Of a stretch of DNA of 64,000 bases, positions 1 to 34,507 are shown piece by piece (position 1 is the stretch's first letter; every line of letters begins with the position of its first letter). The position numbers were made by a program, and so were the translations under genes. This DNA is from Antitrichia curtipendula (Eukaryota; Streptophyta; Bryopsida; Hypnales; Leucodontaceae), in the NCBI GenBank assembly GCA_951230915.1, contig OX579635.1, positions 13,020,001-13,084,000 on the forward strand, given 5' to 3'. The notes under the pieces were generated by a model, which searched no databases, was not told the DNA's origin, and saw only the letters and a list, made by a program, of their open reading frames with translations.

Positions 1-3000
1 TCGGCCTGTACTCCCTCCACGGCCTGCAGCTCTACCATGGCCTCTCGTCCATCCACGGGCTTGTTGATATTGACCTACTTCATGATGAACGGAGGGCCAA
101 GGGGCCACAGGTGGTCTACCACGTGAAACTCTTTGCAGAGTCAAATCAACATTTCCCACTGAGCCTAATCCTTCTTGAGAAGGTCTTTGGATGGCATTGG
201 AAATTGTTTCTGAAGATGGATCTAGGGAATGTGGCACTTGTGTACCATGTTCAGAAATAGCAGGATGGCCCGCAACTGGAGCCGGTACAGGGGCAATGTC
301 TTCGGGTGGTTCTACAAAAGCAAAAACATCATCATGGTCCACATGCTCTGGATCAAAAGGCCTTCTCATGTTACCAGCCGGTTGATTTTTTGCAAAAGGG
401 CGTGGCATTCTTGCATTTCTAACGTTTCTATCATGCTGTCTTTCTAGAGCTCTAATGTTACGAGTTGCTGGTTCCACTCCCGTAGGGCGTGTATTGCCAT
501 CTCGATTGTGAGAAGATCCTCCATGATTTGGATTTGCATTCCTCCCCCTGTTTCTCTCGCCATTTTCATGTCCACCACCATTTCCATTTCCACCACCATT
601 TCCATTTCCACCGCCATTTCCGCCGCCATTTCCTGGAGGGAGGTTGTCATCATCGTCATTGTTGTTGTGGGAAATACCATCATCAACGTTATCGTCATTT
701 GGATTGTCGGTCTCCAAAGAAGACGACAAAGCTGGGACTTCTACAACCCCTTCATTTTGAGGAAGTGGAGGTGAAAGACTACGACGAGGATTTGGTGGTG
801 GTGGTCCCCTACGAGCACGAAGGAGTTCCTCCTCTCCATCATCAGCATCTCCATAGTAGTTCCGCGCTTCTTCGAGGTGATCGGCTCCTTGCCTCCAAAG
901 ATCTGGGTTTGCCGGATACTCTTGAGCTCCTCGGTTGGCTTCCCCATCAACCTCTTCTTCTTCCTCTGATTGTAGTGCGTCAAATTCCCGATTGCGTTCA
1001 TTCACCGGGATCGGTCCAAAGGCATCTGGATCAGAATCCTCTGAGTACATATTCGCATCATACCAACGAACTGGATCGGCTCTTGGTCGTTGGCGAAGTA
1101 CACGGCTATTGGTATAAATATATACCAAGGACTTTGCCTTTTCAGGGGCCAATCGATTTCGGATCTTATTGTGAAGAAAGGAATACATACTCCAATTCCT
1201 TTCACAGGAGCTGGCAGAACACGTAAGGGATAAAACACGCACGGCAATTTTTGAAAGAGCCCGATCTCCAACCCTGTGCCACCATTGGTGGGGAAGCATT
1301 TGTGTCGCACGGATGTTGGGTGTCTCAGCTGGACTGTAGGGTCCAATACCCTCCTCGAATTCTGTTAATTCCGCCATCACATCATCAAAATTGACACGCA
1401 GGTTCCCCATCATGTTGCGGATGACTCTGTACAATGCACGTAGGGCAGTTCGATCTTCCCTGAGCGCCACGTTATCCAAGAGGTATGGATTCAAAAGGGC
1501 CGCTGCGTAGTGTGTATCTTCAAAAATCATGTGCCATCTTGCACTGAAAGATTCTTCCAAAATGACTGCTTTGTCATCACGTAAGCTGAAAGGTGGTTCT
1601 CTTAAAGAAAACACATGCCCTCGCAAATTGTGCATTACGAGCCACGCCCGACCCATGGCTGGTTCTCGTCCATCAAACACACGCAAAGCCTTCAATACGT
1701 CTTCAGTCATGTACACGTAATTCACACACTGTTGCCAGAAAGCCACATCTTCAATGGTTCTTTTGACATTACGTGAAGCGGTAGCTGCTTGCGGTCCATT
1801 TTGTTCATTCCTTAGGGTATCAAAGAAATTTAGAACACGTGGGTGGTTATTCAACCGCTCCAAGACTCCTCTGAGTTTCACCAATCGCTGCAACATGAGG
1901 AAATTACAAGCGAAGCGGGTTTTGCTAGGCACTACGAGTTGCAGATTCAGACTCAACTCGCGGAAAACCGACATGGTCGCATGATGGTTTCGAATGTGTT
2001 GGCACAATCTTTTTGCCCTGGCAATTAAATCGGAAAATTCTTGGACTTTGGCCCAGTCTTCCAACATGAGATCTAGTGCATGTGCCATGCAACCTTGCGC
2101 AAAAATATGCGGGTATGTGTTAGTGATGTCCTTCAATGCGCCAAGCATGTTTGCTGCATTATCTGTGCACACTTGTGTTACATATTTGGGACCCACCTTC
2201 TCAATGTACACGTTCATTTGGTCCGATATGTAGCGCATGGTTTTCTTTTGCGAGGTAGTATCAATTGACCTCAAAAATACATCACCTGTGGGGCATGACA
2301 TCATCACATTCATGAGGGGTCTCCGATTGACATCATCCCAACCATCGGTGCATATCGACACCCCGTAGTGCTTGACAGCAAATCCAACCTTCTCTTGAAT
2401 CTGCTTCTCAATTTGCAATCTCCTCGGTTCACTCAAATTAGTCCTAAATTGATGGTAAGAAGGTGGACTGTATTCAAACTTCGCCACTGAGGTTGCCCTC
2501 ACCGCTTCAATGAAGGCTGGATGCCTTGCCACATTAAATGGCACATTCGCTTCATAGAAAAAACTTGCCCACTTCTCATCCAACTCCTTCCTCTTTGCAA
2601 TGTTGAATGCGTCCGCCATGCGTTGTTGACGTAATGATCCAGATCTCGTAGAATTGGATCCAGCAAGACTATTTGACGTTTGTAGAATATCAATTCCTTC
2701 TGAAACGTTTGCCCCTTCTTTCGCTCTTCCACCATTGATCCCACCCGTCACCTCATTTTCAGTGGCTTCACTTGAACTTGCAAGAGGAGTTGCTCTAGAA
2801 GGCGCACTTTGAATTGGTTCTCCTTCATACATGTCCCCGACATCGATTCGTAGCGGGACAAATCCTGCACAATTGGCAAATCTATGTCGCACTGGACGAG
2901 GCATACTTCGACAAATTGACCTCTCCGATTTGGAGCCATATCCAAAGTGTGCAAAAGCACGCTCACGTTTGTAACTGAAGGTCCCAGCACAGAAAACACA

Positions 3001-3075
3001 AGTCACTTTAACCCCATTCTCCGTAAACTGAAGCCACGGCTCCCATTCCTTGGTCTGCTTCCTTTGACTTGCCAT
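1..3075 (-). CDS. hAT-superfamily transposase, intact, C-terminus beyond window
   Basis: Read codon by codon from ATG at 3075 to base 1, this frame has 1025 codons and no stop, so the C-terminus lies outside the window. Residues 11-45 form a BED-like zinc finger (WEPW, then CVFC at 26-29 and a histidine at 43). The DUF659/RNase H-like core carries ICTDGWDD (241-248) and QVCTDNAANM (302-311), whose aspartates match hAT catalytic positions. The hAT dimerisation region starts near 606 and contains CSASSCERNWSMYSF. After about residue 690 the protein is acidic, then glycine/asparagine-rich (roughly 790-900), and ends in an RG-rich tail, which is longer than usual for hAT proteins. Expected role: a nuclear cut-and-paste transposase. 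No frameshift or stop was seen, so it may be young or active. A second, decayed copy lies at 19816-22937. Confidence 0.93.
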   Translation of the reverse strand, partial: MASQRKQTKEWEPWLQFTENGVKVTCVFCAGTFSYKRERAFAHFGYGSKSERSICRSMPRPVRHRFANCAGFVPLRIDVGDMYEGEPIQSAPSRATPLASSSEATENEVTGGINGGRAKEGANVSEGIDILQTSNSLAGSNSTRSGSLRQQRMADAFNIAKRKELDEKWASFFYEANVPFNVARHPAFIEAVRATSVAKFEYSPPSYHQFRTNLSEPRRLQIEKQIQEKVGFAVKHYGVSICTDGWDDVNRRPLMNVMMSCPTGDVFLRSIDTTSQKKTMRYISDQMNVYIEKVGPKYVTQVCTDNAANMLGALKDITNTYPHIFAQGCMAHALDLMLEDWAKVQEFSDLIARAKRLCQHIRNHHATMSVFRELSLNLQLVVPSKTRFACNFLMLQRLVKLRGVLERLNNHPRVLNFFDTLRNEQNGPQAATASRNVKRTIEDVAFWQQCVNYVYMTEDVLKALRVFDGREPAMGRAWLVMHNLRGHVFSLREPPFSLRDDKAVILEESFSARWHMIFEDTHYAAALLNPYLLDNVALREDRTALRALYRVIRNMMGNLRVNFDDVMAELTEFEEGIGPYSPAETPNIRATQMLPHQWWHRVGDRALSKIAVRVLSLTCSASSCERNWSMYSFLHNKIRNRLAPEKAKSLVYIYTNSRVLRQRPRADPVRWYDANMYSEDSDPDAFGPIPVNERNREFDALQSEEEEEVDGEANRGAQEYPANPDLWRQGADHLEEARNYYGDADDGEEELLRARRGPPPPNPRRSLSPPLPQNEGVVEVPALSSSLETDNPNDDNVDDGISHNNNDDDDNLPPGNGGGNGGGNGNGGGNGNGGGHENGERNRGRNANPNHGGSSHNRDGNTRPTGVEPATRNIRALERQHDRNVRNARMPRPFAKNQPAGNMRRPFDPEHVDHDDVFAFVEPPEDIAPVPAPVAGHPAISEHGTQVPHSLDPSSETISNAIQRPSQEGLGSVGNVDLTLQRVSRGRPPVAPWPSVHHEVGQYQQARGWTRGHGRAAGRGGSTGR

Positions 3076-3334
3076 TGCGTTCAACGATCCAAGGATATTT
3101 TCTTCCGTCTTCCTCCTCCTTTATATTGAAGTTAAAAGGATCCAAGATATACCAAACACAGTATCAGTAACAGCAGTTAGCGCTACTCCACTGCTTGAAC
3201 TGATTTTGACATCACCTCAGCAGCAAACTAGGGCCATCTGCCACCCAAGTAGACTTACAAGGAGCTCAAAATGAATTGAAGTCCAAGAAATAGAGGCCAG
3301 GTGACAAATGTGGGGAATGCTGGGTCTTCCTTTC

Positions 3335-3344
3335 CTTTATATAC
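3335..3344 (-). promoter_or_regulatory. TATA box of hAT transposase
   Basis: The minus strand reads GTATATAAAG about 260 bp upstream of the ATG at 3075. It sits between the coding region and the GC-rich array starting near 3350. The same array-TATA-gene order recurs at other genes here. Confidence 0.6.
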
Positions 3345-3351
3345 TTAGCGG

Positions 3352-4607
3352 TTTAGGGGGCGCGGACGTCTTCGTCACCAAAGTATAAGGCGCGGACTTG
3401 AAGTCAGGGCGGGGACTCTAGGGCAGGGACTCGAAGGTAGGGCGGGGACTTGAAGGTAGGGCGCGGACTCCAGGGCGGGGACTCGAAGGGAGGGCGGGGA
3501 CTCCAGGGCGGGGACTCGAAGACAGGGCGGGGACTCCAGGGCGGGGACTCGAAGACAGGGCGGGGACTCCAGGGCGGGGACTCGAAGACAGGGCGGGGAC
3601 TCCAGGGCGGGGACTCGAAGACAGGGCGGGGACTCCAGGGCGGGGACTCGAACGCGCGGACTCCAGGGCGCGACTCCAGTACAGAAATGCAGGTGTGCTC
3701 ACGGGGATGCATTGAAAAGTACGTTGACCTTCGCCATCCTTAATGGTCTGGGAAGATTGTGTCCCTCCTTTTCATGGAAAAAGGGGAACATTAAATGTCG
3801 TCACGCCTCCAAATTTGTGGGCAAAGAAAATGGCTTTCACTCCCCAATGTTTTTGCTCAATGGATTGTGCTAGGGCGCGGACACAGGGCGCGGACTCCGA
3901 GGCGGACAATTCACACAAATGGAGGAACTTGAGAGAGCGCAGCTCAATCTCAGACTCCATGGAATGGACTCAAAGTCAGGGCGCGGACTCTAAGTCAGGG
4001 CGGGGACTCTAGGGCGGGGACTCAAAGGTAGGGCGGGGACTTCAGGGCGGGGACTCGAAGGCAGGGCGGGGACTCCAGGGCGGGGACTCGAAGGCAGGGC
4101 GGGGACTCCAGGGCGGGGACTCGAAGACAGGGCGGGGACTCCAGGGCGGGGACTCGAACGCGCGGACTCCAGGGCGCAACTCCAGTACAGAAATGCAGGT
4201 GTGCTCACGGGGATGCATCGAAAAGTACGTTGACCTTTGCCATCCTTAATGGTCTGGAAAGATTGTGTCCCTCCTTTTCATGGAAAAAGGGGAACATTAA
4301 ATGTCGTCACGCCCCCAAATTCGTGGGCAAAGAAAATGGCTTTCACTCCCCAATGTTTTCGCTGAATGGATTGTGCTAGGGCGCGGACACAGGGCGCGGA
4401 CTCCGGGGCGGACAATTCACACAAATGGAGGAACTTGAGAGAGCGCAGCTCAATCTCAGACTCCATGGAATGGACTCAAAGTCAGGGCGCGGACTCTAAG
4501 TCAGGGCGGGGACTCTAGGGCGGGGACTCGAAGGCAGGGCGCGGACTCCAAGGCGGGGACTCGAAGGCAGGGCGGGGACTCCAGGGCGGGGACGTACTCG
4601 TCCAGCC
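3352..4607. repeat. GGGCGGGGACTC minisatellite array
   Basis: Tandem units contain GGGCGGGGACTC alternating with CGAAGACA or CAG. The clearest period is 33 bp (3480-3650). Blocks lie at about 3400-3680, 3965-4170 and 4480-4605, all in the same orientation. Long repeat-encoded proline/arginine or glycine frames through the block are by-products of the periodicity. The array lies immediately upstream of the hAT promoter and is a candidate subterminal repeat or promoter-proximal element. Confidence 0.85.
3660..4500. repeat. ~506-bp tandem duplication
   Basis: The segment starting with ACAGAAATGCAGGTGTGC at 3681 recurs at 4187, a 506-bp offset. The copies stay nearly identical through the non-array sequence (for example TTAATGGTCTGG and CAATGTTTT) and into the next array block. 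This is a segmental tandem duplication containing both array and unique sequence. Confidence 0.85.
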
Positions 4608-4800
4608 TAGGAAGCATGACTTTGAAATGCGCTTGTGCTTGACATCCTTCAATCGCCTTTTCCTTAGAGCGGGGGAAGCATTAATTTTAGCCTCAACAAA
4701 TTCTGACAAGACAATGAAAGCAAGATGCCGAATAAAGAGCTCCACGGCCTAAGATTTGGAAGAAACTCCATGGAAGAGCATGTCCCCTTCGTTGTGATGA
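4592..4800. repeat. 200-bp segment duplicated at 7268-7490
   Basis: Sequence after the array (from CTCGTCCAGC through AAGCAAGATGCCGAATAAAG to the start of the T-rich satellite) recurs at 7268-7490 with small indels. The two copies bracket a T-rich block and the Tc1/mariner remnant, so a unit of array, unique segment and T-rich satellite has been duplicated. Confidence 0.8.
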
Positions 4801-4839
4801 AAGGTATTAGGAAAACTCTCCTATCCCAAGTTTGTGCCA

Positions 4840-5860
4840 TTCATTCGAGGTCGGATCTTTCTCTCTCCTTTTTTTTGGGCTTCATTCCTAGAACTCTCCC
4901 ATTCCAACTTATTCTAATTTTTTTTCTTTTGGTTGAATCATTCTTTTTTCTATTTTGTTCCTAAAACTCTTCCATCTCAAATCAAAGCCAAATGTTCATT
5001 TTTGGTTCCATCATTCCTTTCCCTATTTATTTGGATCATTCCTAAAACTCTCCCATCCCAATTCATATTTTTTGGGTTGTTTTGTTGAATGATCTCCTTT
5101 TCTAATTTGTTTTGCTTCAAAACTTAGCAAGTCTCTTTTGTAGTATTCTTCCAACACCATGCCGATCTTTGTTTGTTGAATCATGCCCTTTCCTACTTCA
5201 TTTTTGTTTATTTCTTGAAGTTCTACCACCTCAATTCAAAGCCATAATTTATTTGTTCCATCATTCTCTTTTTTTTCGTTTTTGTTTCTGCTTCATTTCT
5301 AAAATTCTTCCATTCCACCTCAATGCCCCTTAGTTTTTTTGGCTATATGAACTCCTTAAGCACTTTGTTTTCAACTCAATGCCATTTTATTTTTGTTCCA
5401 CCATTCCCTTTCCTATTTTGTTTGGCTTCATTAATTCCTAAAACTCTTTAATTCCATTTGCATGCCAATAGTTATATGTAGAATCATTCGATTCTCTATT
5501 TTTGTATACGTTCCTATTTTTTTCCTTCTTTAATTCCTAAACTCTTTTATTCCAAGTCTATGCCAATCTTTTTTTATTTAGTCATTCCCTTTCCTATATT
5601 TGTTCTTTGCTTCGTTCCAAAAACTCTTCCATCCTAAATCATTGCCATTCTTGATTTGTTGAATCATTCCCTTTTTTATCACTTTTGCTTCATCCATAAA
5701 CAAATTCTTCCATCCGAAGTTCCGAACTCAATGCCATTTGTTTTTTAATCCATTATTCATATTCCTATTGATTTTTTATTTCATTCTTGTCTTAGAACAA
5801 TGAGAAGTTACAAGTTATAGTTTGTTCTTCATGTAAAGGGATTCATTTTTTGGAATACTT
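4840..5860. repeat. T-rich degenerate satellite, block 1
   Basis: Imperfect repeats of roughly 70-90 bp share the motifs CATTCCCTTTCCTATTTT, GGCTTCATTCCTAAAACTC and CCATCCCAACTCAATGCC. All are in the same orientation. There are no convincing genes; short frames here are repeat artefacts. Confidence 0.75.
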
Positions 5861-5887
5861 GGCACAAGGGACTCTTTTTTAATTGAA

Positions 5888-7130
5888 TGTACAGTACCCT
5901 CCAAGAACTCTTGCAACCCCATGTCTAGTTCTCATCCGAGTAGTTTGATTACAAATCAAACTCATGGTAGGTAAATTTAGATATTTGATTGAGATTTTTT
6001 GCCCCAAACTAGGTGAGTCATGCACCTTGTTGTAACTCATTCCACTTCTTAGAAAAATCTTTCTTTGTGAAAGGTGGTTGATTTTGAAAACACTAAGCTA
6101 AATTTAAAGGGACAATGCTAATTTGAAAATTTCATTGTAGAAGATCATAGGTAGTGGATTTCAACCGGTTTTGCGGTTGAGAGGATCAACATTAGTGCAT
6201 GCATGCTTCTAGTGATTGTTGCTTGTAGACATAGTCTAGAAGTTTTGTGAGAAAAAATTAATGTTTGTCTAAAATATTGTATATATGATGTTGCTAGAAG
6301 TTCTATAAGCAAACTTGTGAAGTTCTAAGCAATGTTGGTCAACTTTGCACCATGACATAATGTAAAATTCATTGAGTGGCCACCAAATTCTTTTGACCTT
6401 AATCCTATAGAGAATTTATAGAAGCAAGTCAAAGATCGAGTACAAAAAAGATGTAGATCCTACAACAATGACTAAATGTGGACATTAGTGAATATGGCAT
6501 GCAAGGATATACCTCAAGAAAGTATTCAAAAGTCAATTTCTACGATGCCAAACCAAATCAAAGCTAAGGTAGCAGCTCAAGGTGGTAGTACTTGATGGTA
6601 GTAGGTGTAACACTTTGTTGCAAAGTCGTTGCTAGTCAGCGAGACATACTGTAAAATTCATGATATAGTAGGCTTCTACAATACCATAGCTTCCTAATGA
6701 TATCCTATTTGACAATATTTATTCAAATGTTTTTGAATACATGACCTTTGCCTTGAACATGTATGAAAGGAAATTGCAAAATACATTAAAGCCAAATAGA
6801 CAAAAAATTTACCTACATAGTGTGCATCTTTGTAATATGAAAGATGTGAACAATAATGTTTCCTAAATATATACGCAATCAGATCTTAAAAAATCATCAT
6901 ACACATTTTCTAATTAATTATTATGTAATATCGTGAAAAATAAATAAAATAATTCACCAAAAATGGAGTTTCTATTTTTAGACATTGAAATTTCATATGT
7001 TGGTGAAGGTTCCATAAAGCAATAGATTTAATAGGATACTTTTCATAGTATGTTCTTAAAATGGAGTTAAAAAGGAAAATTTGAAGGACTTCATAATGGG
7101 GTTGCAAGACTTTTTGGAAGGTACTGTACA
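5888..7130. mobile_element. Degenerate Tc1/mariner element with terminal inverted repeats
   Basis: The ends form an inverted repeat: TGTACAGTACC plus CTCC at 5888-5902 matches the complement of 7116-7130. Similarity continues inward for about 36 bp to CTTGCAACCCCAT. A TA dinucleotide lies at each CAGTACC end, as expected for this superfamily. Internally, the + strand at 6377-6418 encodes WPPNSFDLNPIENL, the hallmark around the last catalytic residue of Tc1/mariner transposases. The next codon is TAG (6419-6421), where the family usually has Trp. The rest of the transposase is too decayed to read. It is inserted between array or satellite sequence on both sides. Confidence 0.85.
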
Positions 7131-7283
7131 ATAGGGCGGGGACTCCATGGTGGGGACTTCAAATAAGGGTGGGAACTCGAAGTCAGGGCGGGGACTCTAG
7201 GGCGGGGACTCGAAGTCAGGACGGGGACTCGAAGTCAGGGCGGGGACTCGAAGGCAGGGCGGGGACTCCAGGGCGGGGACTAA
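7131..7283. repeat. GGGCGGGGACTC array, displaced block
   Basis: About seven GGGCGGGGACT units follow directly on the right end of the Tc1/mariner remnant, in the same orientation as the 3.4-4.6 kb array. They are followed by the copy of the 4592-4800 segment. Confidence 0.85.
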
Positions 7284-7730
7284 CTCGTCCAGCACAGGAA
7301 GCAAGACTTTGAAATGCGACATCCTTGAACCGCCCTTTTCCTTGGAGAGTGGGAAGCATTAATTTAGCCTCAACAACTTATTTTGGATTCTGACAAGACA
7401 ATGAAAGCAAGATGCCGAATAAAGAGGTCCATGGCCTAAGATTTGGAAGAAAATCCATGGAAGGGGATGTCTCCTTTGTTGTGGTGAGAAATGTTTTTCC
7501 TTACTTCTTCTAACACTTTAAACTACTTTGAACAAACATATCATTTAGGTTGTAAAAAACAATGTAAATTCTTTGATTTAGGAAATGTTTAGGACACTTT
7601 GAGGAAATATTTAGTAAATGTTTAATCAATATTTTTGAAATGTAGTGTACTAGATAAAAGGATAAAACTGCATTGTATTTGAAATGAAAGAAATAGTAGG
7701 GGAGTTATTTAAAATTCTAGGCCTTCAATA
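7284..7730. other. Duplicated segment then AT-rich DNA, no gene seen
   Basis: 7284-7490 is the second copy of 4592-4800. The remainder is AT-rich with no open frame of interest. Confidence 0.7.
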
Positions 7731-9300
7731 TGCAACTGCAATTTTTAATTCCATCATTTCCTTTCCTAATTTTTCGGGCTTCATTCCTAAAAGTCTTCCA
7801 TTCTAAGTCACTGTCCTTTTTTGGAGGGCATCATTCCCTTTCCTATTTTTTTCCAGGAATTAGCACAGGTCTCCCATCCCAACTTGTCAATTGTATGGCA
7901 TTCTTTTTGGGTTGGATCATTTTGTCTTCTTTTTCTGTAGATGCTTCATTCGTAAGACTCTCCCATCCCAAATTATATTTAATTTTTTTGGTTTAGTTGA
8001 ATCATTCCTTTTTCTATTTTGTTCCTAACAATCTTCCATCCCAATTTTCAATTCATCTTTTTTTGTTGAATCATTTCCATCTCTATTTTGTTTTCGCTTA
8101 TTTCCTGAAGTTCTCCCACCCCAAGTCCCCAACTCAAAGACACCATTTTTTTCTTCATTAATTCATAGAACTCTTTTATGTGAACTCCATGCCAATATTT
8201 ATTCATCCAACTCACTTCTTTTCCTATTTTTTTTCTTCATTAATTCCTAAAATTGTTCAATCCAACGGTAAGCATTTTTTTTTTGCTTATTTCCTTTCCT
8301 ATTTGTTTTATTTATTAGCACAATTATTCCATCCTAAGGGATTCCCTAAATTTTTTTCTTTATGGTACGAAATTGAAGTCTATCCATTCACTTCCCATTT
8401 TTCATATGACATAAGAGGTAATGTGAAACAATATTTCTTTCATATTTCTTTCTCATTTGTTTGTTTTTATTAGCAACATTTAAAATGCACTTACATTTCT
8501 TTCCCTTCCTAATCTTTGTAAAATTCATTAGCAAAATGCCAAAATGGCTCCATTCCATCATGAGCCCGAAGGCCATTTAAATAATTTAATTTTTGTATTA
8601 CCTAAGCCCTTCTTATTTTTTGTTAGTGATTTGCAAGATTATTGTATCCCAAATAGATGCCTTTTTTTTGGGTATATCATTTACTTCCTAATTTTATTTG
8701 AACTTCATTTGCAACATTATCCCATGCCATCCCAATGGCCAATGCCCTTTATTTTTTGTATATCATTCCCTTTCCTATTTCTTTGGGATTCATTCCCTTA
8801 TCAAATGTTTCTTGGGATTCATTCCCTTTCCTTTTTGGGGGGGATTCTTTCCCTTTCCTAATTTTTTGGATTCATTTCTTTTCCAATTTTTTTAGATTGA
8901 TTAGCAAAATTGTTACATCCCAAGTTATATAAAAACTAAAAGGCATTATTATTCTCTTCCTAATTTTTCTCCAACTCAATGCCAATTTTTGGCATTCAGT
9001 TTACCTTCCTACTTTTTTTGTGCTTCATTAGCAAAATTGCTCCATCTAAAATTCTCAATCAAAGGCCATTTAAATTTTGTATTCTCTAAATCCATTCTAA
9101 TTTTTTTGGGCTTCATTTGTCACGTTATTCTATCCCAACTAAATGCCATTCATTTTTAAGTAGGTAATTACTTCTCTATTTTTTGCTTTTCTCTATCATT
9201 CCTTTGCCTATTTTGCAAGTGAATTTTACCTATTTCAATCCCTTTTGGGGGGGAGTTCCATCATTCCTTTGCATATATATATATTTCCATCAAGGCATTA
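7730..9300. repeat. T-rich degenerate satellite, block 2
   Basis: Same repeat family as 4840-5860, with recurring CTCCCATCCCAA and CATTCCCTTTCCTATTTTTTT. Units are 70-90 bp and all in + orientation. Weakly open frames rich in Phe, Leu and Ser are repeat artefacts. Confidence 0.75.
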
Positions 9301-11994: not shown

Positions 11995-12092
11995 TTTTGT
12001 AGAAAAAAGCGAAATCCTCCACGTGGCAATCAAGTAGACCCCGCACAACGCTCACAACCAGCTCAATGAAGAGATGGAAGGCTGAGAGTATG

Positions 12093-15766: not shown

Positions 15767-15774
15767 TTCCCCCG

Positions 15775-25924: not shown

Positions 25925-26111
25925 CGTGACAGTAAAAAGTAACAAATAATCAAAATGAAAGGAATTAGGAATTCGGCTTCCACCGCCCCCCTTATTCCTC
26001 AAAATAGCCTCTACCCAGCACCCGTGCTCGCAAGCAAGGACTGCAATCAATCCAAGACAAGAGAGCACCGTCAGAGCAGGAGAGATTGTGGCGAAAGTAC
26101 CCTAAAAACAG

Positions 26112-26121
26112 TCTTATATAC
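26112..26121 (-). promoter_or_regulatory. TATA box of kinase-like gene copy 2
   Basis: The minus strand reads GGTATATAAG, about 190 bp upstream of the ATG at 25924. This is the same spacing as in copy 1. Confidence 0.55.
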
Positions 26122-26251
26122 CCATTTCACGTTGTCATGTTGTAAATTTGTTCATAGTATAAAAACATATTATAATATGTATTGTTGAGTAGCTTCATGG
26201 TGACGCTATTTTGTTGAATAACTTCAAGATGACGTTTCGTAGAGGTTCATG

Positions 26252-26262
26252 TTATCTATTTA
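26252..26262 (+). promoter_or_regulatory. TATA-like box of small gene
   Basis: CTATTTAAAAGG lies about 75 bp upstream of the ATG at 26333, divergent from the kinase-like promoter at 26112. Confidence 0.4.
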
Positions 26263-26332
26263 AAAGGACGGCTTTGCTTTAGAGTTTCATTGAAGTCCAT
26301 TAGTGATATTAATTTTCCACTTTATAGTCAGA

Positions 26333-26791
26333 ATGTCGAACTGGAGGGTTTTTTCAGAGTCCCAAGAGGAAGAAGTAGAATCGGAGCCTGGATTTGAATT
26401 TTCATTGTCACAACTACCGGATCAACCTCTTCTGCCACTAAGTCTTGCGCCGCCGCATGAGCGTCTACAAGAAGAAGCTGGGCCTTCTCGTCCGCCAAAG
26501 CAACCTCGTGTGGAGCGGCGATGGCACGAGAATCTTCAACGTGACGCTCGGGCACTGGTGATTTTGTTGCAAGTTGGATGTGTTGAGCCTGGCAGTCGAG
26601 ATGTGACATTTGAAGGATGTTTCGAAGGTCTCAACATTGATCAATATTACTGTATGATGAAGCCTACTGAAGGAAGTCGTGGTCACCATCGTTGGTTAGA
26701 AGGGCCAGTGAATCCTTTAACGAAGGCGGGTCGTGTTGATTACATCGCTGCGACTATCAAGCGCATTCTCAAGTTCTTGCAGATGGAGTAA
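26333..26791 (+). CDS. Small unknown protein, divergent from kinase-like gene
   Basis: ATG at 26333 (after TCAGA) starts a 152-residue frame ending TAA at 26789-26791. An upstream in-frame ATG at 26303 is less likely. The N-terminal third is acidic and proline-rich (EEEVESEPGFEF). A basic segment PPKQPRVERRWHENLQR follows, which could be a nuclear localisation signal. The C-terminal half (GCVEPGSRDVTFEG to AATIKRILKFLQ) looks globular. No family was recognised. It shares about 400 bp of intergenic sequence with the kinase-like copy 2 promoter. It is intact while its neighbours are broken. No counterpart was seen near kinase copy 1. Confidence 0.6.
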   Translation: MSNWRVFSESQEEEVESEPGFEFSLSQLPDQPLLPLSLAPPHERLQEEAGPSRPPKQPRVERRWHENLQRDARALVILLQVGCVEPGSRDVTFEGCFEGLNIDQYYCMMKPTEGSRGHHRWLEGPVNPLTKAGRVDYIAATIKRILKFLQME

Positions 26792-27785
26792 AAAATAGTC
26801 TTGGAATTCTATTTTTTTACCTCTAATAGGCATTGGTTTAATGTTAGTACTTCAATCCATATTTGAAGTATTTTGTTGAAACTATTTTGTTTGGTTATAG
26901 TTGTAGAAGGAAAGAATGGAAATAGTTTGGACTTTGAAGTGATTTTCTTTCTAAGTTAAAGATAAAGATTTAGATGTGGGGCCAAATATGAAGGCCATTA
27001 GGTGTAAGTTGACTTTAGGAGGGAGTTAAGGGCTGATGTACACTTGTTTAGGTGGGGCAAAAGGTGTTGGAAAAGGGGAGAAAAAGATGGACACTATTCA
27101 TCTTCTCTCCCAATGTTGTTTTGGGGGAACCGAGTGTTTGGAAGTTCATTGTGTATTGGGTTTTTGGAATTTGGTAATGAAAATTGGAGGAGTTGTTTAT
27201 CATATTGTTAGCTTTCCAAATTGTTCTCTCTTGCTTTATTTGAAGTTGTGAGTTGAGATTTGTGCTTGTTTGAGTGGAGGGAGGTCTGCTGCCTCCTATG
27301 AAGAGGGGCTGAGACTTCGACCGACCATAGAAAACAGACAGGTCTTTTGTTTAGAATGAAACTTTGATGGAGTGTAGTACATGTTGTTAGCTTTCTATAA
27401 AGCTATCATTCATTCAATTTGGAGCATTTATGAGTGAGTTGTGAGTGTGAGAAGGTGAGAGAGTCTCTTGTTTTTACCATATATGGACCGAAACTTTGAG
27501 AGGTCATAGAAGTTGGACAGAGTTTTGGAGTGACTTGAAAGTTGTAAGAGTGATAGTAAAATTTGTTAGCTCTCAGAAAAGCTATCAATCTTTTAATTTG
27601 AAGAAGAAATGCAAAAGTTATGAGTATGGAAGCATAGGAAGGTCTGATGCCTTTTCTTTTTGAGTGGAGTTTAGGTAGTTTGAGGGTGAAGTTGGAGTTC
27701 TTTTAGAGTTTTGAAGATATTTTTGAAGATGTGAAGGCTTAAAGACTTGAAGATGAAAGATTTGAAGAGCTTTGAAGGTCTCCAG
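26792..27785. repeat. Degenerate ~180-bp repeats, no gene seen
   Basis: Units recur around 27140, 27360 and 27540 with TTGTTAGCTTTCTATAAAGC or related, GAGTGAGTTGTGAGT and AGGTCTGATGCC-like motifs. The DNA is purine-rich on the + strand. No credible coding sequence. Confidence 0.5.
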
Positions 27786-28295
27786 TGTGTTGTGGCTTGT
27801 GGTTCGTTTTCATTTCTGTTATTCCTAGCCGGATTTGGAGGCTAGTTGCAATTCAATTTCTGCATTGTAAACTTGTTGCGAGCCGTGGTTATCCAGTAAG
27901 CGCTCCTTTTTGTGTTTGTGGCAACGAAGTGGGGTTAATGACCCACATGGTCGATCTTATTTGTTGTTCCCACCGGTGAAAGGCGCTTCCTGGTCACCGT
28001 GGGTTTGATTTTAGGAGTCAATCTTTCGGACGGCCAACTCGTGGTTTGGCTGTCCCGTTTTACCCGTCCGAGGCCTTGTTTCTTATAACACACCTTTACC
28101 TTTGGCCCTATAGAACCACCACAGGATAGGTCAACGGAAGATTGAAGTGAAGATCAAGCGAAGGTTGAAGAAAAGATTAAGTGAAGATTCAAGTTTTGTT
28201 ACTTAACTTTCATCTACACTCACAACCTGCAGCCAGACACCTCGTGTGTTCCCTAAGCGCGCTCCTCTCTACACGACAACGTGGCCGGGGTGAAC
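27786..28295. other. No gene recognised
   Basis: Mixed-composition sequence with GACGG/CCGTCC motifs near 28030-28065. Nothing coding could be supported. Confidence 0.4.
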
Positions 28296-28473
28296 TGACC
28301 CCCTCGCTCGGCCCTCCGGGTCGACCCTGTTTTCCGCACCATTGTTTTTTTGCAAATTATGAATTCATAAAGACCCTTAATTAGTTCAATCACATTAATA
28401 ATAAACCTGGATCGGCCGAAAATAGAGGGCTTTCCTATACATGCACCCCTGGTAAGGCCGAGCGAGGGGGTCA
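28296..28473. repeat. 18-bp perfect inverted repeat
   Basis: TGACCCCCTCGCTCGGCC at 28296-28313 is the exact reverse complement of 28456-28473. They are separated by about 142 bp and sit just left of the GACGG array, so they could be element ends or a hairpin. Confidence 0.75.
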
Positions 28474-28496
28474 ATCCACCCCAATCATTCACGTCG

Positions 28497-28806
28497 ACGG
28501 ACAGGCTGTCGAGAGGACGGACAGAGCGTCCAGGGCCGTCCAAGGCGTCCAGAGGACAAGCCATCCAGGGGCCAAGTCGTCCAGCCCGCGGACTGGCCGT
28601 CGAGAGGACGGGAAGGCCGTCCAGGGGGGGAGACCATCCAGCCTGCGGATTGCTTGGCCTGAGGACGGGAAGGCCGTCCAGCCCGCGGACTAGCCGTCCA
28701 GCCCGCGAACTGGCCGTTGAGAGGACGGGAAGACTTTTGAGAGACGGGAAGGCCGTCGAGAGGACGGGAAGGCCGTCGAGAAGGCGGGAAGGTCGTCGAG
28801 CGGGCC
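28497..28806. repeat. GACGG/CCGTCC array
   Basis: Units of roughly 20-30 bp combine GAGAGGACGGGAAGGCCGTC and CCGTCCAGCCCGCGGACTGG. Frames through it are artefacts. It belongs to the same motif class as 19163-19505 and 31313-31935. Confidence 0.8.
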
Positions 28807-31312
28807 ATTCAAAACAGTGCTGGCCGAGTGTAATTCATTTCTAATCCTTGTTCGGAGAATTTTTCATTTATGTGGTTTGGCACTCTCGGACTTGTCAGGA
28901 CAGGTGTCCTCCCTCTCAATCGGGCATTAGACTACGGTGGCGGGTAGTTTAAGAGTGCTAACTTAATGTTCACACTTGTTTCAATTAGAGGACAAATAAA
29001 TACCAGAGATGACATTCAAATGCTCAAAAAACAAGGTTTATTGCTCATTTAGAATGGAATTGTATTTTGTTGCACGTAAATAATGGAAAAAACATAGAAA
29101 AAACTATAGAAGGTCAAATTGAAAACTTCTTAATGTCGGTCCTAGAATGTTCTATTTGGATGTTCATGTTAACATTTGATTCATTCTAATTGCACCCATT
29201 TTCATGAAAGTTGTTGGCATTGGGCAATGTTTTTTTTACAAAAATCCCAGAATCTCGCAATCCCTTAAAATAATTTATATTCTGTAGGGCTCAAATTCGA
29301 ATTCAAATGAATTTTATCAATTATAACTTGTACAATTTCACCTTTGGAATTATTGTATTTTGATTCCATCCTTCCCTGCATGTAAGTGCACCTGATAATT
29401 TAGTATTTTGTTGAATTTTAAACCCTGTCTACACTAATATACTAAACTCAAAGTCTCAAACGTACAAACATTCAATAACTTACTAAGCCCGGATCAAATA
29501 TACAAAGACCAAGACAAAAAACACCCTCTAAATGCTCTAGTTAAAGGTAGTAAGATTAAAACTCTGAAATGGTTAATTATGAAATAAGTGAAAGACCTCC
29601 TAAACAACATATGTCATATGCATATCATTGATTAATGTAAAACATTGTTTTGGCTTTCCATTCATACATTACAGAAAAAGAATGTAGCCCTATACATCTA
29701 AACTTAAGAATGTTTTACCTTCTAAAGATATTGTTATGCCGTTTTTTGGTGTCTTCAATATGTTTTATAAAACTTTGATTTTAAATCATTAATCTATTTT
29801 TTTCCAATTCAAACTTCAAAGACTACATCTCGATCAAGTTTTGCACTTGTAATGCCAACTAAAAAAAAGAAGGACATTTTTTGTAGTTTCCGGTCCATGC
29901 TAGGTTTTGAAGAAAACCCTATAGGCCAATACCCTAAACCCTAAACCCTAAACCCTCTTCATTGTTGCAATTTTAAGAGTATTTGATGTTCAAGTTTATG
30001 TAACTATAGCAAATAAGAGTGGATTGGTTTCCTAAAATTGAAATGCAACATTGAGTACATGAACTTCACATTTTTGTGGTCTCTATATTTTTTTTATGGC
30101 TTCTAAATTATAAAGCAACTAGCGGTGAATTATTATAGTTTTTCATATGGATTGTTTATTAATTGCTTATGTAGTACCGTATGTTAACCACTAAACTGAC
30201 TAAAGTCCCAAGGCCTCTTTTCCATCCTATATCTGAAATAAATTGCCATTTCTATAGTAAAGAATGTAAAAAAAAAAATGAATGTGTTTAGGACTTTAGG
30301 CCTTTAAGGTGCACATCTACTTGTAGTATGTAAGATCTCATACTAGAGTACTAGAGTAGTGTTCAATTGACCGGAAGAAATTTCACAAACTTTGTCTATA
30401 TAGAATTGTAGATTGCAAGATATTTACAATAAACTTCAACCTCTGAACGCTCAACGACATCATTTAGTGCTAATTTGATGGCAATTCAATCACTTCAATG
30501 AGATGGAAAGATTGTGGAAGCGTTTAATTCATTTTTTGAGGACCTTCCATGTTGAGTTACAAAGTGTATCCAAATGATTTTGTAGTCTTTCCGATATTTG
30601 CCTCCGCGTAATTTAGAGTTTAGGAAAAAAAAAAAAAAAAAAATGCTACTTTAGTGTATCTTGGGAAGTTGTTGCTCCTTACTCTAAATCTGAAATTTCT
30701 CCCCCAAATTGATATTTTCTGAGTTTGAGTCTAACTATCAAGCAAAAGTTCATTTTCTCTAGTTCCTATTTTATGTAAAATCCCCCAACACGACCCTAAA
30801 AATGAAATTTCATTATTGCGATTTGCACTTCGAATGTGTTTTTAATGTCTACTACATTTAGTACATTCTAAATAAATCATGAAATGGAAATTAAGTTTAT
30901 GCTATGATGGATTCTAATGTCATTATCCTTGTGATATAAGGTAAACCTGCCTCTGACAGGCAGAATGACTGATTTGTTGTATTGCCATTAGCAAAAATAA
31001 TCAAATTTTTTCCATACAAAGACACATGTGAGAAATGAAGAACGCAACTGGAATTTTATTTTTTGGATTAAAAATGATTTTTTTTAAAATTTTTGAAGTG
31101 TACTGTCCAGTATGCCCAAAAGAGTTTGTAGACTATCCCAAAGCAGTACAAAATTATTTCCATGATGGTCATCTTCCCACCTAAAACAGACATAACATCT
31201 TCTAAGATGGCTACAAGACTTTCTAACATGGACATGGCATGAAGAAATAAAAAAACTGCTTTTTACTAAAAATAAAAAATCAATTTTCAAAAAAATAAAA
31301 ATAAAAATTTTA
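28807..31312. other. AT-rich DNA, no gene seen
   Basis: 2.5 kb without a credible frame. It includes an A-run at about 30625-30645 and the interstitial telomeric repeat listed separately. Confidence 0.5.
29931..29957. repeat. Interstitial telomere-type repeat (CCCTAAA)n
   Basis: Nearly four units of CCCTAAA follow each other. This is the plant telomere heptamer and is a weak organism clue, too short to be a telomere. Confidence 0.85.
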
Positions 31313-31935
31313 AAGGGCTGTCCAGGACGTTCGGCAGGCCATCGAGAGGACGGGCAGGCCGTCCCAGACCACGAACAGGCTATCGAGAGGATAGGCGGGC
31401 CGTTCCCGACCAGCGACAGGCCGTCGAGGAGACGGGCACCCCGTCCTTTTGGACGGCCTTTCCGTCCGAGAGACGGGTAGGTCGTCTAGAGGACGGGTAT
31501 CCCGTCGAGGAGACGGATTTGCTGTCCATGAGACGGGTATTCCGTCGAGAAGACGGGTATGCCGTCCACGAGACGGGTATTTCGTCGAGGAGACGGGTAT
31601 GCCGTCCAGGAGACGGGTATTCCATCCAGGAGACGGGTATGCCGTCCAGGAGACGGGTAGGCCGTCCAGGAGACGGGTAGGCCGTCCAGGAGACGGGTAG
31701 GCCGTCGAGGAGACGGGTAGGCCGTCGAGGAGACGGGTAGGCCGTCGAGGGGACGGGCAGACCGTCGAGAGGACGGAAAATCCGTCCGTCCAAGTCTCGG
31801 GCGGCGGTGTAATTATTTCCCGAACCTGTCGACGGCGCCCCGAACCCATTGACGGCGTCCCAACCTTGTGTCGGACCTCTGTGGACGTATCGGCCGTCCA
31901 TTCCAGGGCTGTCCCACGCCCTAGACGGTCTGGAT
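31313..31935. repeat. ~20-bp GGAGACGGGTAGGCCGTCC array
   Basis: A regular array of about 20-bp units (GCCGTCCAGGAGACGGGTAG) occupies 31440-31760, with diverged GACGG/CCGTC motifs on both sides. It begins with GGGCTGTCCAGG and ends near CCAGGGCTGTCCC (31901-31913), a CAGGG-like end. It lies directly upstream of coiled-coil/RING copy 2. Confidence 0.88.
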
Positions 31936-31999
31936 TGGGGGGGGGGGACGGGCTGATGTTATGTTAATTACCCTGCCTAATCGGGTCGGTAATTGGGGG

Positions 32000-32007
32000 G
32001 TATAAGT
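32000..32007 (+). promoter_or_regulatory. TATA box of coiled-coil/RING gene copy 2
   Basis: GTATAAGT lies about 210 bp upstream of the ATG at 32213 and just downstream of the GACGG array. Confidence 0.45.
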
Positions 32008-32212
32008 GAACTTTATTGGACAGTTTACGTGCTTCCTCTTTTGAGTTGCACTGTCCGAGCTTGAGAAAGCTTCGCTCTGCAATTTGAGGGGAAGTGTTAT
32101 ACATTTGACATTGTTTTGCCACATTTCAGTTGCCTTCACGCAACAGAAGGCAAAGCAAATTGTCATTGTATTCGCATACAGTATCGTGTGTGTCATTTTC
32201 CAGGTATCAAGA

Positions 32213-34507
32213 ATGGACCCAGAGGATGTAGCAGGAGGTTCGGGCCCTGAAGGTGACCCTCCAGGAGGTTTGGGACCTGGAGGTGCCCCCCCAGGAGGTT
32301 TGGGACCTGGAGGTGAACCCCCAGGTAGAAGGAAGAGATGAAACAGAGCAACCTTGGATTGGGGCACACTTAATGTCGAAGAGGTTATGGCAAAGCTTGG
32401 GTGGTTGGAGGCAGATGGCCCATAGACAAGAGTGATATGTCGTCAATATATAGATTGGGCCCACATCAACCGCCATTGGCCACACGACCGGTACGAGGTG
32501 CACGTGAAATCTGGCGTGGTAAATATTGACCAGTGCCAACATCCGCACTTCAAGAAGAAGATGATTGAAGTATCATTGGCACTTTGGGGGGCAAGATCCA
32601 AGAAAGACGGGACACTTTCATTGTGCCAAATGGCATATGCGGAGGTTTTTCTTGGCAAAGATGTGGACTGGAGCAGCTTTTTGGGCAAATTGCGGAATAA
32701 TGCATTTCCAAATCGAACTCGCCACATTGCACCAAATCCTGCTGTGCCATTGGACAATGTACCAAATCCTGCCGTGCCATTGGCTGATGTCCAAAATGTG
32801 CAAATGAACATGGTTCCGCTGGCGGAGCGTCCAAGGACGGAGTTGATGGAGGTAGAAGTTGGTCAGGGCAACGGTCCAGATGTCAACCAACAAGCTGTGA
32901 TTGGTGGAGTGCAAGCTGACGGTGAAGAAGTAATTTGCTTGCGCCAATTAGTACAAACACTGCAAGCAGAAAAAGAAGAAACACTACGACAATATGCTGC
33001 AGCGTTGGAAGTTCACCGTGCAAGGATGCGGGCCGTTCTAGATGAAAATGTGTGCCTCATCGCACGTGAAGCCGAGCTCGTAGAGCATGAAAGGCGGGTC
33101 AGCATAGACTCAGTTCCACCACTCGATCTTGTAGTGGAACATGCTACATACGGTGCAGATGAAGACACACCAGGCCCGAGCAATAGATCTGAGTTTGTGC
33201 AGCGATCACGATCCACTTTTCCAAGTGCAGAAAGTGCCACATTGGATATTATGCGTGCACGTGCTGAGCGAATTGAAGCAGAGCTTGGAAGTACTCGCAC
33301 AAACATGGAAAAATTAACAAACACCATGCGTGCTTTGGAACTTTGTGCCAACAACGCTGAGGCAGAGGTGGTGGTGGTTACTGCAGCTCGAACAACCTTG
33401 GAGTAGACCATGACCGCATTGAGTGTTGAAAATATGCGGTTGGTTCAAAATCCTCAGAAGGAGCAGAGGCTGCTTCAAATGTGCAACATGAAGTTGACAT
33501 GCAACTTAGCGCTAAAAGAGGCTGAGCAAATGCAACGTGAAGTGAGGAGAGTGGCTGCAGAATTCAATGATGGCGGTCAACGTTATTTTGGCTTGACCTC
33601 GTGGCCTCGGGTGGCAGAAATGTTCACCGATGATTTGCCAGTGTATAGGGATAATTCAAGCATCGATTGGAATGCCCGTCCAAACTTGGAATTCCAATAT
33701 AATATCGATTGCCAACGGTACGAGCCACCCAACCACAATGGCATTACGCCACTAGTGTGGCCTTCCGTTCCAGATTTTGTACAAGATGGAACAACATGTA
33801 TAATGTGCCAACAACCGTTTGGCCCCGAGGGTGGATGGAATCTTGGTACATGTGGCCATCTATACCACCCTGTGTGTCTTATTCCATACATGGTCACCAG
33901 AAAGAGATGTGCGCAATGCAGGGCACCATTTCATGCACGACTGTACAAAACGTTTGGCCTTCAAGACCACATGCCTGAACATTACGAGTACAATGAAGAA
34001 AATTTACCGGGCATCGGTAATAGAGTACATTGGGGGTCCGACATGACATGGCTTTGGAAGTGGGGCCACCACAATCGACACCTCCCGGCAGGAACGATGG
34101 CTGGCATACCATGGACGAGTGATGCCCAAGTGATAGAGGTGATCAGGAGGGTGTTTGGAGACAGTGATTCAGGGCATCGACTATATTTTGGTTAGATTGC
34201 CGGTGGACATTGGGACCCAGAGCGCTTAATTTTTGTGCGCGCACCACATCCACAACGCATCATGTTTAACTCTCAAGGCCAGCCAGTCGGATTTGAGGGG
34301 GAATTGGGTTATGAGGAAGAAATGGCGTACATTGCAGACAATACCTTCCATGAGCCAGCCCTCGTGAATGACATTTTTTCCCACTTACATGATAGATACA
34401 ATATAGAAGCACTTAAGCTTCTGAGGACTTTCGAATCGCAACAAGAACTGCAGCGATTTTTGAGAAATAGCATAGCAAGCGGCGTTGTAATCGAAGATGT
34501 AGACTAG
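32213..34507 (+). pseudogene. Coiled-coil plus RING-H2 protein, copy 2, broken by in-frame stops
   Basis: ATG at 32213 opens a single frame of 765 codons ending TAG at 34505-34507. It is interrupted only by TGA 32339, TAG 32423, TAG 33404 and TAG 34193, with no frameshift. The leader is glycine/proline-rich (PPGGLGPGG repeats). The conserved YIDWAHIN region and DVDWSSF follow, then two coiled-coil stretches (about 32930-33090 and 33240-33400). The RING-H2 finger is at about 33790-33920: CIMC, CGHLYHPVC, CAQC. TAG 32423 aligns with TGG and TAG 34193 with CAA of copy 1. A RING-H2 E3-ligase-like role is inferred. The C-terminal 100 codons after TAG 34193 remain clearly coding. Confidence 0.82.

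What the first reader, a model, noticed from the sequence alone, without database searches (positions are those of the whole stretch)
1..34507. Two sets of the same three genes: hAT transposase, kinase-like protein, coiled-coil/RING-H2 protein
hAT (1-3075; 19816-22937), kinase-like (13993-15573; 24264-25924) and coiled-coil/RING (9697-11994; 32213-34507) each occur twice within 35 kb. The two sets are clearly diverged and rearranged, and each set has its own array motif (GGGCGGGGACTC in set 1, GACGG in set 2). hAT elements normally carry only a transposase. Repeated co-occurrence suggests either a multi-gene hAT-like element or a transposase plus satellite elements carrying a kinase and an E3-like protein. 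These could modulate host silencing or transposase activity.
Basis: partly seen in the sequence, partly recalled or inferred. Interest (0 to 1): 0.88.

Follow-up and report, generated by a model that had tools for sequence, protein, structure and literature searches.

The report
Three-gene hAT transposons with kinase and RING
Two neighbouring 16-18 kb pieces of this plant-like genome are jumping genes of the hAT kind that, besides the usual jumping enzyme, each carry a protein kinase gene and a ubiquitin-ligase-like gene, and well over a hundred copies with the same gene layout show that the three genes travel together.

Summary
Family 1 (window -1823..16198; 18,022 bp) is complete, with an exact 8-bp duplication. 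Family 2 (19161 to about 37757) lacks its last ~47 bp here, but 9 of 9 copies fetched with both ends are 15.9-16.5 kb with CAGGGTTGTC-type ends and 8-bp duplications (6 exact, 3 one mismatch). Genome-wide, scored gene copies with a scored partner within 20 kb (97 of 146, 95 of 106, and so on) agree in strand every time; cross-family pairs are at chance level, so the two sets are neighbours by accident. The proteins are only 27% (RING), 27% (kinase) and 41% (hAT) identical between families, yet the trio is kept, and RING and kinase show purifying selection between families (dN/dS 0.16-0.18, rough). Family-specific tandem arrays lie upstream of the three genes and near both ends. A contig apparently from another organism has a related RING gene with its own array and the same CAGGGTTGTC end. 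Function is inferred: kinase plus E3 act for the element, as anti-silencing or transposase control. Five literature searches on element content found no such hAT element.

The parts
1..16198 (-). Element 1 (family F1), 18,022 bp in all, running from C3:13018177 (window -1823) to window 16198; gene order along the minus strand: kinase, RING, hAT
   Evidence: Ends and exact 8-bp TSD GAATATAC on both sides; left flank fetched
1..3075 (-). hAT transposase of F1 (DUF659 + Dimer_Tnp_hAT), runs off the window's left edge; open frame 1,191 aa
9697..11994 (-). Coiled-coil / RING-H2 protein of F1 (765 aa in an intact copy, P0001); two in-frame stops in the window copy
   Evidence: copies genome-wide
13993..15573 (-). 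Protein kinase of F1 (526 aa in an intact copy, P0003); one in-frame stop in the window copy
   Evidence: copies genome-wide
16185..16198 (-). Kinase-side terminus of element 1, TATGGTTGTCATAC (CATGGTTGTCATAC in the C4 copy)
16199..16206 (.). Target-site duplication GAATATAC of element 1 (its twin lies at C3:13018169-13018176)
15829..16009 (-). GGGCGGGGACTC array: subterminal and upstream of kinase 1; TATATAAA follows at about 15765
12151..12307 (+). GGGCGGGGACTC array upstream of RING 1; TATATAAG follows at about 12130
7133..7281 (+). GGGCGGGGACTC array in the long non-coding stretch between RING 1 and hAT 1 (not next to a known gene start)
3389..4593 (+). GGGCGGGGACTC arrays upstream of hAT 1; TATATAAA follows at about 3343
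19161..37757 (+). Element 2 (family F2): left terminus CAGGGTTGTC at 19161; right terminus missing (last ~47 bp of the family replaced by other sequence)
19816..22937 (+). hAT transposase of F2 (1,026 aa in an intact copy, P0005); four in-frame stops in the window copy
24264..25924 (-). Protein kinase of F2; three in-frame stops in the window copy
32213..34507 (+). Coiled-coil / RING-H2 protein of F2 (764 aa in an open copy, P0002); four in-frame stops in the window copy
19305..19436 (+). GACGG array: left subterminal and upstream of hAT 2
28580..28800 (+). GACGG array upstream of kinase 2 (pushed away here by the 2,146-bp insert)
31333..31786 (+). GACGG array upstream of RING 2
37351..37657 (+). 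GACGG array, right subterminal
26133..28278 (.). 2,146-bp secondary insert in element 2 (ends TGTC...GACA, TSD ACGT), absent from the copy used as reference; not part of the family

Best explanation
Both sets are members of one ancient lineage of multi-gene DNA transposons of the hAT superfamily (families F1 and F2, with F3/F4-like relatives). Each element carries a DUF659-type hAT transposase, a protein kinase with intact catalytic motifs and a coiled-coil/RING-H2 protein between CAGGGTTGTC-type ends. SHOWN: the trio lies inside single TIR/TSD units in the copies read, recurs in fixed layout through the genome, and is kept across strongly diverged families; RING and kinase are under purifying selection between families; family-specific tandem arrays lie upstream of the three genes and near both ends. 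INFERRED: the arrays are binding sites for an element-encoded protein that ties the three promoters and both ends to one regulator. The kinase and the RING E3 probably act on proteins that limit the element. My first choice is host silencing factors, the kinase marking a target and the E3 having it degraded: an anti-silencing module working like VANDAL's VANC with its motif arrays. My second choice is the transposase itself. Confidence in the anatomy about 0.93; in 'acts for the element in trans' about 0.75; in anti-silencing specifically about 0.35. The figure below is for the statement without the choice of target.
For: Ends and TSDs: F2, 9 of 9 copies with both ends read show 8-bp duplications, 6 exact and 3 with one mismatch (ten were fetched, the tenth's right end lay beyond the fetched stretch); F1, window copy exact, C4 copy 7 of 8. 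Layout: RING2-kinase2 97 of 146 within 20 kb, all opposite strand, median 7.26 kb; RING2-hAT2 84 of 146, all same strand, 10.4 kb; RING1-kinase1 95 of 106, all same strand, 4.8 kb; RING1-hAT1 81 of 106, all same strand, 8.0 kb; random placement gives means of 1.0-2.6 for these four. 479 F2-type left ends within 3 mismatches, 0 in the reversed control; of the 70 exact ones, 59 have at least one scored trio gene, and 31 all three, at the expected distance and direction. Deep retention: 27/27/41% identity between F1 and F2. F3 has RING and kinase head to head. Selection between families: RING1/RING3 dN 0.241, dS 1.379; kinase1/kinase3 (170 codons) dN 0.300, dS 1.827; within F2 the ratios are 1.18 (RING), 0.75 (hAT) and 0.63 (kinase), as expected if copies decay after insertion. 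Kinase: Lys248 and Asn370 invariant, Asp365 and Asp389 near-invariant in 33 sequences; model pLDDT 82.6 matches protein kinases. RING: 7 of 8 Cys/His ligands invariant or near-invariant in 24 sequences. Arrays: 1,119 of 1,194 GACGG sites of nine F2 copies lie in the 27% of length made of 1 kb at each end and 1.2 kb upstream of the genes; a TATATAAR box follows the array at all three F1 genes. Another organism: L047 has a 39% identical RING gene behind its own 21-bp array and 0.5 kb before ...GACAACCCTG.
Against: No expression, binding or transposition data. The role of kinase and RING is inferred from domains and context only. No other genome could be tested for the whole trio on one stretch: L047 is 4.9 kb and shows RING, array and one terminus, but no kinase, no transposase, no second end. 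dS between families is near saturation; for RING1/RING2 it is 4.3 and for kinase1/kinase2 not computable, so the ratios are rough. None of the 11 F2 sequences compared is free of stops in all three genes. The array zones were chosen after seeing the histogram. An exact TATATAA box was found upstream of only the kinase in the F2 copy scanned, and F1 has one array in mid-element away from any gene start. RING scores are below Pfam's curated cut-offs. An inner 8-base end-like string lies before RING in 7 of 9 F2 copies.
Confidence: 0.85

Rival explanations
1. The kinase and RING control the transposase rather than host silencing: phosphorylation and ubiquitin-dependent turnover of the transposase set dose, timing or excision state.
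For: The three genes have the same family-specific array upstream, so they look co-regulated; the trio is kept together with a hAT that has itself diverged to 41%.
Against: No direct evidence for a kinase or E3 acting on a hAT transposase; nothing here separates host target from transposase target.
Confidence: 0.3
2. Kinase and RING manipulate cell cycle or DNA repair (for example, favouring S-phase transposition or templated gap repair), which raises copy number.
For: Copy number is high: 479 F2-type left ends, though some may be derivatives. The kinase profile's best matches among solved structures are CaMK-type kinases and VRK1, the latter a chromatin and cell-cycle kinase by recall.
Against: The sequence matches are weak and lie round the catalytic loop; Foldseek ranks tyrosine and other kinases first.
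Confidence: 0.15
3. Passive capture: host kinase and RING genes or fragments picked up by a hAT element, without function for it (Pack-type capture).
For: Capture of host sequence by plant DNA transposons is common (recalled; a passage of PMC6446971, says additional ORFs in Mutator elements are often assumed to come from the host).
Against: Full-length open frames verified in single copies (RING1 784, RING2 820, kinase1 560 aa); both genes in two families 27% identical; purifying selection between families; kinase motifs conserved; own arrays.
Confidence: 0.04
4. Transposase plus separate satellite elements that carry kinase and RING and insert near each other.
For: An inner 8-base CAACCCTG lies before RING in 7 of 9 F2 copies.
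Against: One pair of ends and one TSD enclose the trio in 9 of 9 F2 and 2 of 2 F1 copies; strand agreement is complete in six pairings.
Confidence: 0.02
5. The extra genes are cargo selected for a benefit to the host plant.
For: Purifying selection between families cannot by itself tell element benefit from host benefit.
Against: Copies decay individually (stops, dN/dS 0.6-1.2 within F2) while 89-150 copies per gene were scored, the usual pattern of element genes and not of a maintained host gene.
Confidence: 0.06

Closest known systems
Canonical hAT elements (Ac, Tam3, hobo, Hermes, Tol2)
   Same: Transposase with hAT C-terminal dimerisation domain, CAGGG-type short TIRs, 8-bp TSD (tested here; the consensus they are compared with is recalled).
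   Different: 16-18 kb and three conserved genes; a passage of PMC10175614 describes the hAT elements Tol1 and Tol2 as 4.4 and 4.7 kb, encoding the transposase. Motif arrays upstream of the genes.
VANDAL Mutator-like elements of Arabidopsis (VANA/VANB/VANC)
   Same: Multi-gene element; targets of VANC often form tandem repeats in non-coding regions, including terminal and upstream ones, that vary between related elements (PMC5735166, passages). Here the arrays differ between families and are the least conserved parts, 85-92% against 96-99% elsewhere.
   Different: Different superfamily; the accessory proteins here are a kinase and a RING protein. Homology with VANC was not tested; Pfam shows only kinase and RING domains. 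[quoted passage not shown]
En/Spm (CACTA) elements with TnpA/TnpD and MuDR with mudrA/mudrB
   Same: Plant DNA transposons with a second element-encoded protein and repeated subterminal motifs (recalled).
   Different: Other superfamilies; no kinase or E3 (recalled).
Starships and Teratorn (giant cargo-carrying eukaryotic elements)
   Same: Transposons with many genes (PMC10175614, passages).
   Different: Much larger, other transposition enzymes; Starships have variable cargo and few copies. Here a fixed trio in many copies. A review of giant eukaryotic transposons (PMC6431247) has no occurrence of 'hAT' or 'kinase' in its main text.

Membership tests
hAT superfamily | Transposase with hAT C-terminal dimerisation domain (PF05699) | tested here: met
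   E 9.4e-8 (set 1) and 6.3e-10 (set 2), above Pfam cut-off
hAT superfamily | 8-bp target-site duplication | tested here: met
   9 of 9 F2 copies (6 exact, 3 with one mismatch); F1 2 of 2 (exact, and 7 of 8)
hAT superfamily | Short TIRs of the CAGGG/CA-G type (consensus recalled) | tested here: met
   Left edge CAGGGTTGTCTATC in 11 of 11 F2 copies incl. the window's; right edge GACAACCCTG or a one-base variant in 9 of 9; F1: CAGGGTTGTC at one end, CATGGTTGTC (C4 copy) or TATGGTTGTC (window) at the other
hAT superfamily | Catalytic D, D, E residues | tested here: inconclusive
   Motifs CTDGW/CSDGW, CTDNAAN and SSCERNWS (SSCECNWS in the P0005 copy) are seen in both families, but their assignment as the triad is recalled and no structure was made
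hAT superfamily | Single-gene element of about 2.5-5 kb (typical by recall, not defining) | tested here: not met
   15.9-18.0 kb, three genes
Protein kinase superfamily | Kinase fold with catalytic Lys, Asp, Asn and Asp of the DxG motif | tested here: met
   K248, D365, N370, D389; fold; Pkinase above cut-off
RING-H2 E3 ubiquitin ligases | C3H2C3 zinc ligands | tested here: met
   C488, C491, C506, C514, C525, C528 invariant and H511 nearly so in 24 sequences; H508 is C or D in some relatives. Pfam RING scores stay below the curated cut-offs
RING-H2 E3 ubiquitin ligases | Ubiquitin ligase activity | not testable with these tools
   needs in vitro ubiquitination
VANC-type anti-silencing system | Family-specific tandem motif arrays in non-coding parts of the element | tested here: met
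VANC-type anti-silencing system | Element protein binds the motif and removes DNA methylation | not testable with these tools
   needs ChIP/EMSA and bisulphite data
VANC-type anti-silencing system | VANC homologue | not tested
   no VANC sequence was compared; Pfam shows only kinase and RING domains in the accessory proteins

The most novel reading that the evidence does not exclude
A hAT lineage has evolved its own counter-silencing system: an element-encoded kinase and RING E3 that disable host silencing (or its readers), steered to the element by family-specific tandem arrays that also couple the promoters of all three genes. It would be convergent with VANDAL/VANC but built from signalling and ubiquitin enzymes, with kinase-E3 pair and array co-evolving between families.
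Probability: 0.3. Interest if true: 0.92.

Novelty: new variant of a known kind. Interest (0 to 1): 0.78.

Why it matters
hAT elements are usually thought of as one-gene cut-and-paste transposons. A lineage that has carried a kinase and an E3-like protein long enough for the proteins to diverge to 27% identity, and that has made well over a hundred large copies, suggests that a plant DNA transposon can need signalling and ubiquitin enzymes to spread. It gives a concrete system to test how transposons fight silencing, what tandem subterminal arrays are for, and whether arrays and element proteins co-evolve. It also shows that kinase and RING genes from such elements turn up in public sets under bacterial labels (one is named a Bacilli kinase; one contig is binned as a cyanobacterium).

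Tried and rejected
Satellite-element and passive-capture readings were rejected (see rivals). A fourth gene was considered: the 165-aa frame at 26294-26791 lies in a 2,146-bp insert of the window copy, and no further coding stretch was found shared by F1 and F2: 155 frames of 35 aa or more from F1 non-coding DNA gave no tblastn match in one F2 copy at 1e-3. Virus contigs: 21 and 23 pattern matches, none confirmed as a relative. Prokaryote genome contigs: 40 pattern matches for RING, one confirmed, L047. The RING model is low-confidence (pLDDT 62.8), and its conserved N-terminal domain has no confident PDB match. A search with Pfam DUF659 returned 150 of 1,109 candidates, mostly F2 by position as far as I compared by eye; it did not locate the F3 transposase. 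Literature: seven answered searches, five on element content and two aimed at the host. I saw listings only, and not whole ones (20 of 63, 20 of 112, 1 of 1, 12 of 528, 12 of 12; 6 of 6, 12 of 29), plus passages of four papers. None of what I saw describes a hAT element with kinase or RING genes; the library holds open PMC papers only. The host species was not identified: CACTA domains that I recall as plant-type and a weak transposase match in Chara braunii (28%) only point to a streptophyte.

dN/dS: own Nei-Gojobori script, 11 F2 sequences, 55 pairs. Rows dropped before the co-location count: 19 of 125 RING1 rows (identity 87% or less) and 5 of 109 kinase1 rows (86% or less); all rows of the other four lists were kept.

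Full report
Setting. The window is C3:13020001-13084000 of an unnamed 400-Mb assembly of 303 contigs. CACTA domains that I recall as plant-type lie nearby (DUF4218, tnp2, DUF4216). The host is probably a land plant or streptophyte alga; that is inference.

Observation. The two hAT genes, two kinases and two RING proteins are present at the stated places. Identities between the sets are 41% (hAT, over 681 columns), 27% (kinase, over 504) and 27% (RING, over 762).

The sets are transposons with ends. Ten copies of set 2 were fetched as 20-kb stretches. All ten, and the window copy, share a sharp left edge beginning CAGGGTTGTCTATC. The nine whose right edge was in hand end in ...GACAACCCTG or a one-base variant. 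The eight bases outside the two ends agree exactly in six copies and with one mismatch in three. The elements are 15,880-16,452 bp. For set 1, the left flank and one other copy gave the ends: the window copy is 18,022 bp with an exact GAATATAC duplication, and the C4 copy has GGCTGGTC/GGCTCGTC. One F1 end reads CATGGTTGTC (C4) or TATGGTTGTC (window) instead of CAGGGTTGTC. By transposase domains, ends and TSD these are hAT elements. Inside, 7 of the 9 F2 copies have one CAACCCTG shortly before RING and one copy has an inner CAGGGTTG. I saw no partner or duplication for these, and take them as chance or at most fossil ends.

The trio is the element's gene content. Whole-genome searches with one exon or domain each scored 146, 150 and 138 copies of RING2, kinase2 and hAT2 and 125, 109 and 89 of RING1, kinase1 and hAT1. 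The tool scores only the best of 1,101-1,580 candidates, so these are lower bounds. After dropping 19 RING1 and 5 kinase1 rows of other subfamilies, partners within 20 kb number 97 of 146 (RING2-kinase2), 84 of 146 (RING2-hAT2), 101 of 150 (kinase2-hAT2), 95 of 106 (RING1-kinase1), 81 of 106 (RING1-hAT1) and 77 of 104 (kinase1-hAT1), against random means of 0.8-2.6. All of these pairs agree in relative strand, and spacing is tight; 71 RING2 and 75 RING1 copies have both partners within 25 kb. F1 is kinase> RING> hAT>. F2 is hAT> <kinase RING>. Cross-family pairs are at chance level (2-4), so the neighbourhood of the two sets in this window is accidental. The F2 left end occurs 479 times within three mismatches (0 for the reversed control). 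Of the 70 exact ones, 59 have a scored trio gene, and 31 all three, at the expected distance and direction; 11 have none in the capped lists. A third family, F3, has kinase and RING head to head, RING 62% identical and kinase segments 71-82% identical to F1, the kinase broken in the copy read. More diverged relatives (72-77% to F3) exist.

Copies die, genes persist. Within F2 the mean dN/dS is 1.18 (RING), 0.75 (hAT) and 0.63 (kinase) over 55 pairs. No in-frame stop was seen in 4 of 11 RING, 3 of 11 hAT and 5 of 11 kinase sequences, and no sequence is free of stops in all three genes. Between families the values are 0.24/1.38 for RING1 against RING3 and 0.30/1.83 for 170 codons of kinase1 against kinase3. 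That is what genes needed for spread look like: each inserted copy decays, the lineage does not. The dS values are near saturation (4.3 for RING1 against RING2, not computable for kinase1 against kinase2), so the ratios are rough.

Proteins. In 33 aligned kinases the ATP lysine and the catalytic asparagine are invariant, the HND and DWG aspartates nearly so, and an unusual WWNG motif is invariant. A model of the closest database relative (P0034, 88% identical over 97%) has pLDDT 82.6, pTM 0.65, and matches protein kinases. The RING proteins share an N-terminal helical domain, a coiled coil, the RING-H2 and a C-terminal domain; by sequence profile the RING is nearest to RNF24, RNF38 and Arkadia. 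Database relatives number 27 for RING, 33 for kinase and 41 for hAT. Nearly all are unnamed or 'hypothetical', mostly on contigs under 10 kb; I infer metagenome origin. Named exceptions include a 'Bacilli bacterium' kinase (73% identical, probably contamination) and a Chara braunii transposase (28%). P0065 is 57% identical to kinase 2 but 30% to kinase 1, so a kinase-2 lineage also exists outside this family of copies.

Arrays. GACGG sites in F2 cluster near both ends, upstream of the kinase and upstream of RING, with the left cluster also upstream of hAT. In nine copies 1,119 of 1,194 sites fall in the 27% of length made of 1 kb at each end plus 1.2 kb upstream of each gene (zones fixed after viewing the histogram). 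In F1, 39 of 47 GGGCGGGGACTC sites fall in the same kind of zone (24% of length); five of the other eight form a mid-element array and three lie just beyond the hAT zone. A TATATAAR box follows the array within about 65 bp at all three F1 genes; in the F2 copy scanned an exact TATATAA was found upstream of the kinase only. Arrays are the least conserved parts between F2 copies (85-92% against 96-99%). L047, a 4.9-kb contig binned in a cyanobacterial MAG, encodes a 39% identical RING protein preceded by its own 21-bp array and TATATAAAA, and followed 0.5 kb later by ...GTCCTTTTTGACAACCCTG. Its other end is not on the contig, so no TSD could be tested. The RING-array-terminus arrangement thus exists in what is, by divergence, another organism.

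Mechanism. Shown: co-mobility, long-term retention, purifying selection, conserved catalytic motifs, arrays upstream of the genes. Inferred: the arrays are read by an element protein; kinase and E3 act for the element. The nearest functional parallel I know is VANDAL, where VANC binds tandem motifs in non-coding regions of its own family and induces loss of methylation, and where targets vary between related elements (PMC5735166, passages read). I put anti-silencing first (about 0.35), transposase control next (0.3), and cell-cycle or repair control third (0.15).

Verdict. A real, high-copy, multi-gene hAT lineage; a new variant of a known kind. 'Not described before' rests on five answered searches of open papers on element content, of which I saw partial listings, and on recall, so it may be known in work I could not search.

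Noticed in passing
window 16409-17574 and 50431-53557: CACTA (En/Spm) remnants: DUF4218 (E 5.6e-33), Transposase_21/tnp2 (2.8e-59), DUF4216 (1.9e-11). Element 1 ends about 200 bp from the first of them.
   Followed up: partly
window 26133-28278: 2,146-bp insert in element 2 with ends TGTC...GACA and TSD ACGT (read); contains a 165-aa frame with no Pfam match.
   Followed up: partly
window 38210-38542 and 38560-38886: A ~330-bp inverted repeat, next to a GACGG-rich stretch ending ...CTGTCAACCCTG, which looks like the right end of another, perhaps non-autonomous, relative.
   Followed up: no
G000, e.g. C1:30077713 and C1:30079208: Many F2-type left ends carry GGGGTTTT in place of GGGCTTTT: a second subfamily or non-autonomous derivatives with the same ends. 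Whether trio genes follow them was not tested.
   Followed up: no
F2 elements, about 10.6-11.0 kb from the left end: Inner CAACCCTG before the RING gene in 7 of 9 copies; chance, or a fossil end from the time the trio was assembled.
   Followed up: partly
window 43267-44410 and 59018-60154: Two minisatellites of about 102- and 107-bp units, not related to the finding.
   Followed up: no
window 29931-29956: Short interstitial run of ACCCTAA (3.7 copies), the plant-type telomere unit by recall.
   Followed up: no
L047 (CADCWO010000051.1): Transposon contig, eukaryotic by content, binned in a cyanobacterial MAG; another relative (P0035) is named a Bacilli kinase.
   Followed up: yes
RING protein N-terminal domain, P0001 about residues 40-135: Conserved helical domain (..EWCHI.. 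and following) with no Pfam match and no confident fold match; a candidate new domain, possibly the DNA- or substrate-binding part.
   Followed up: partly
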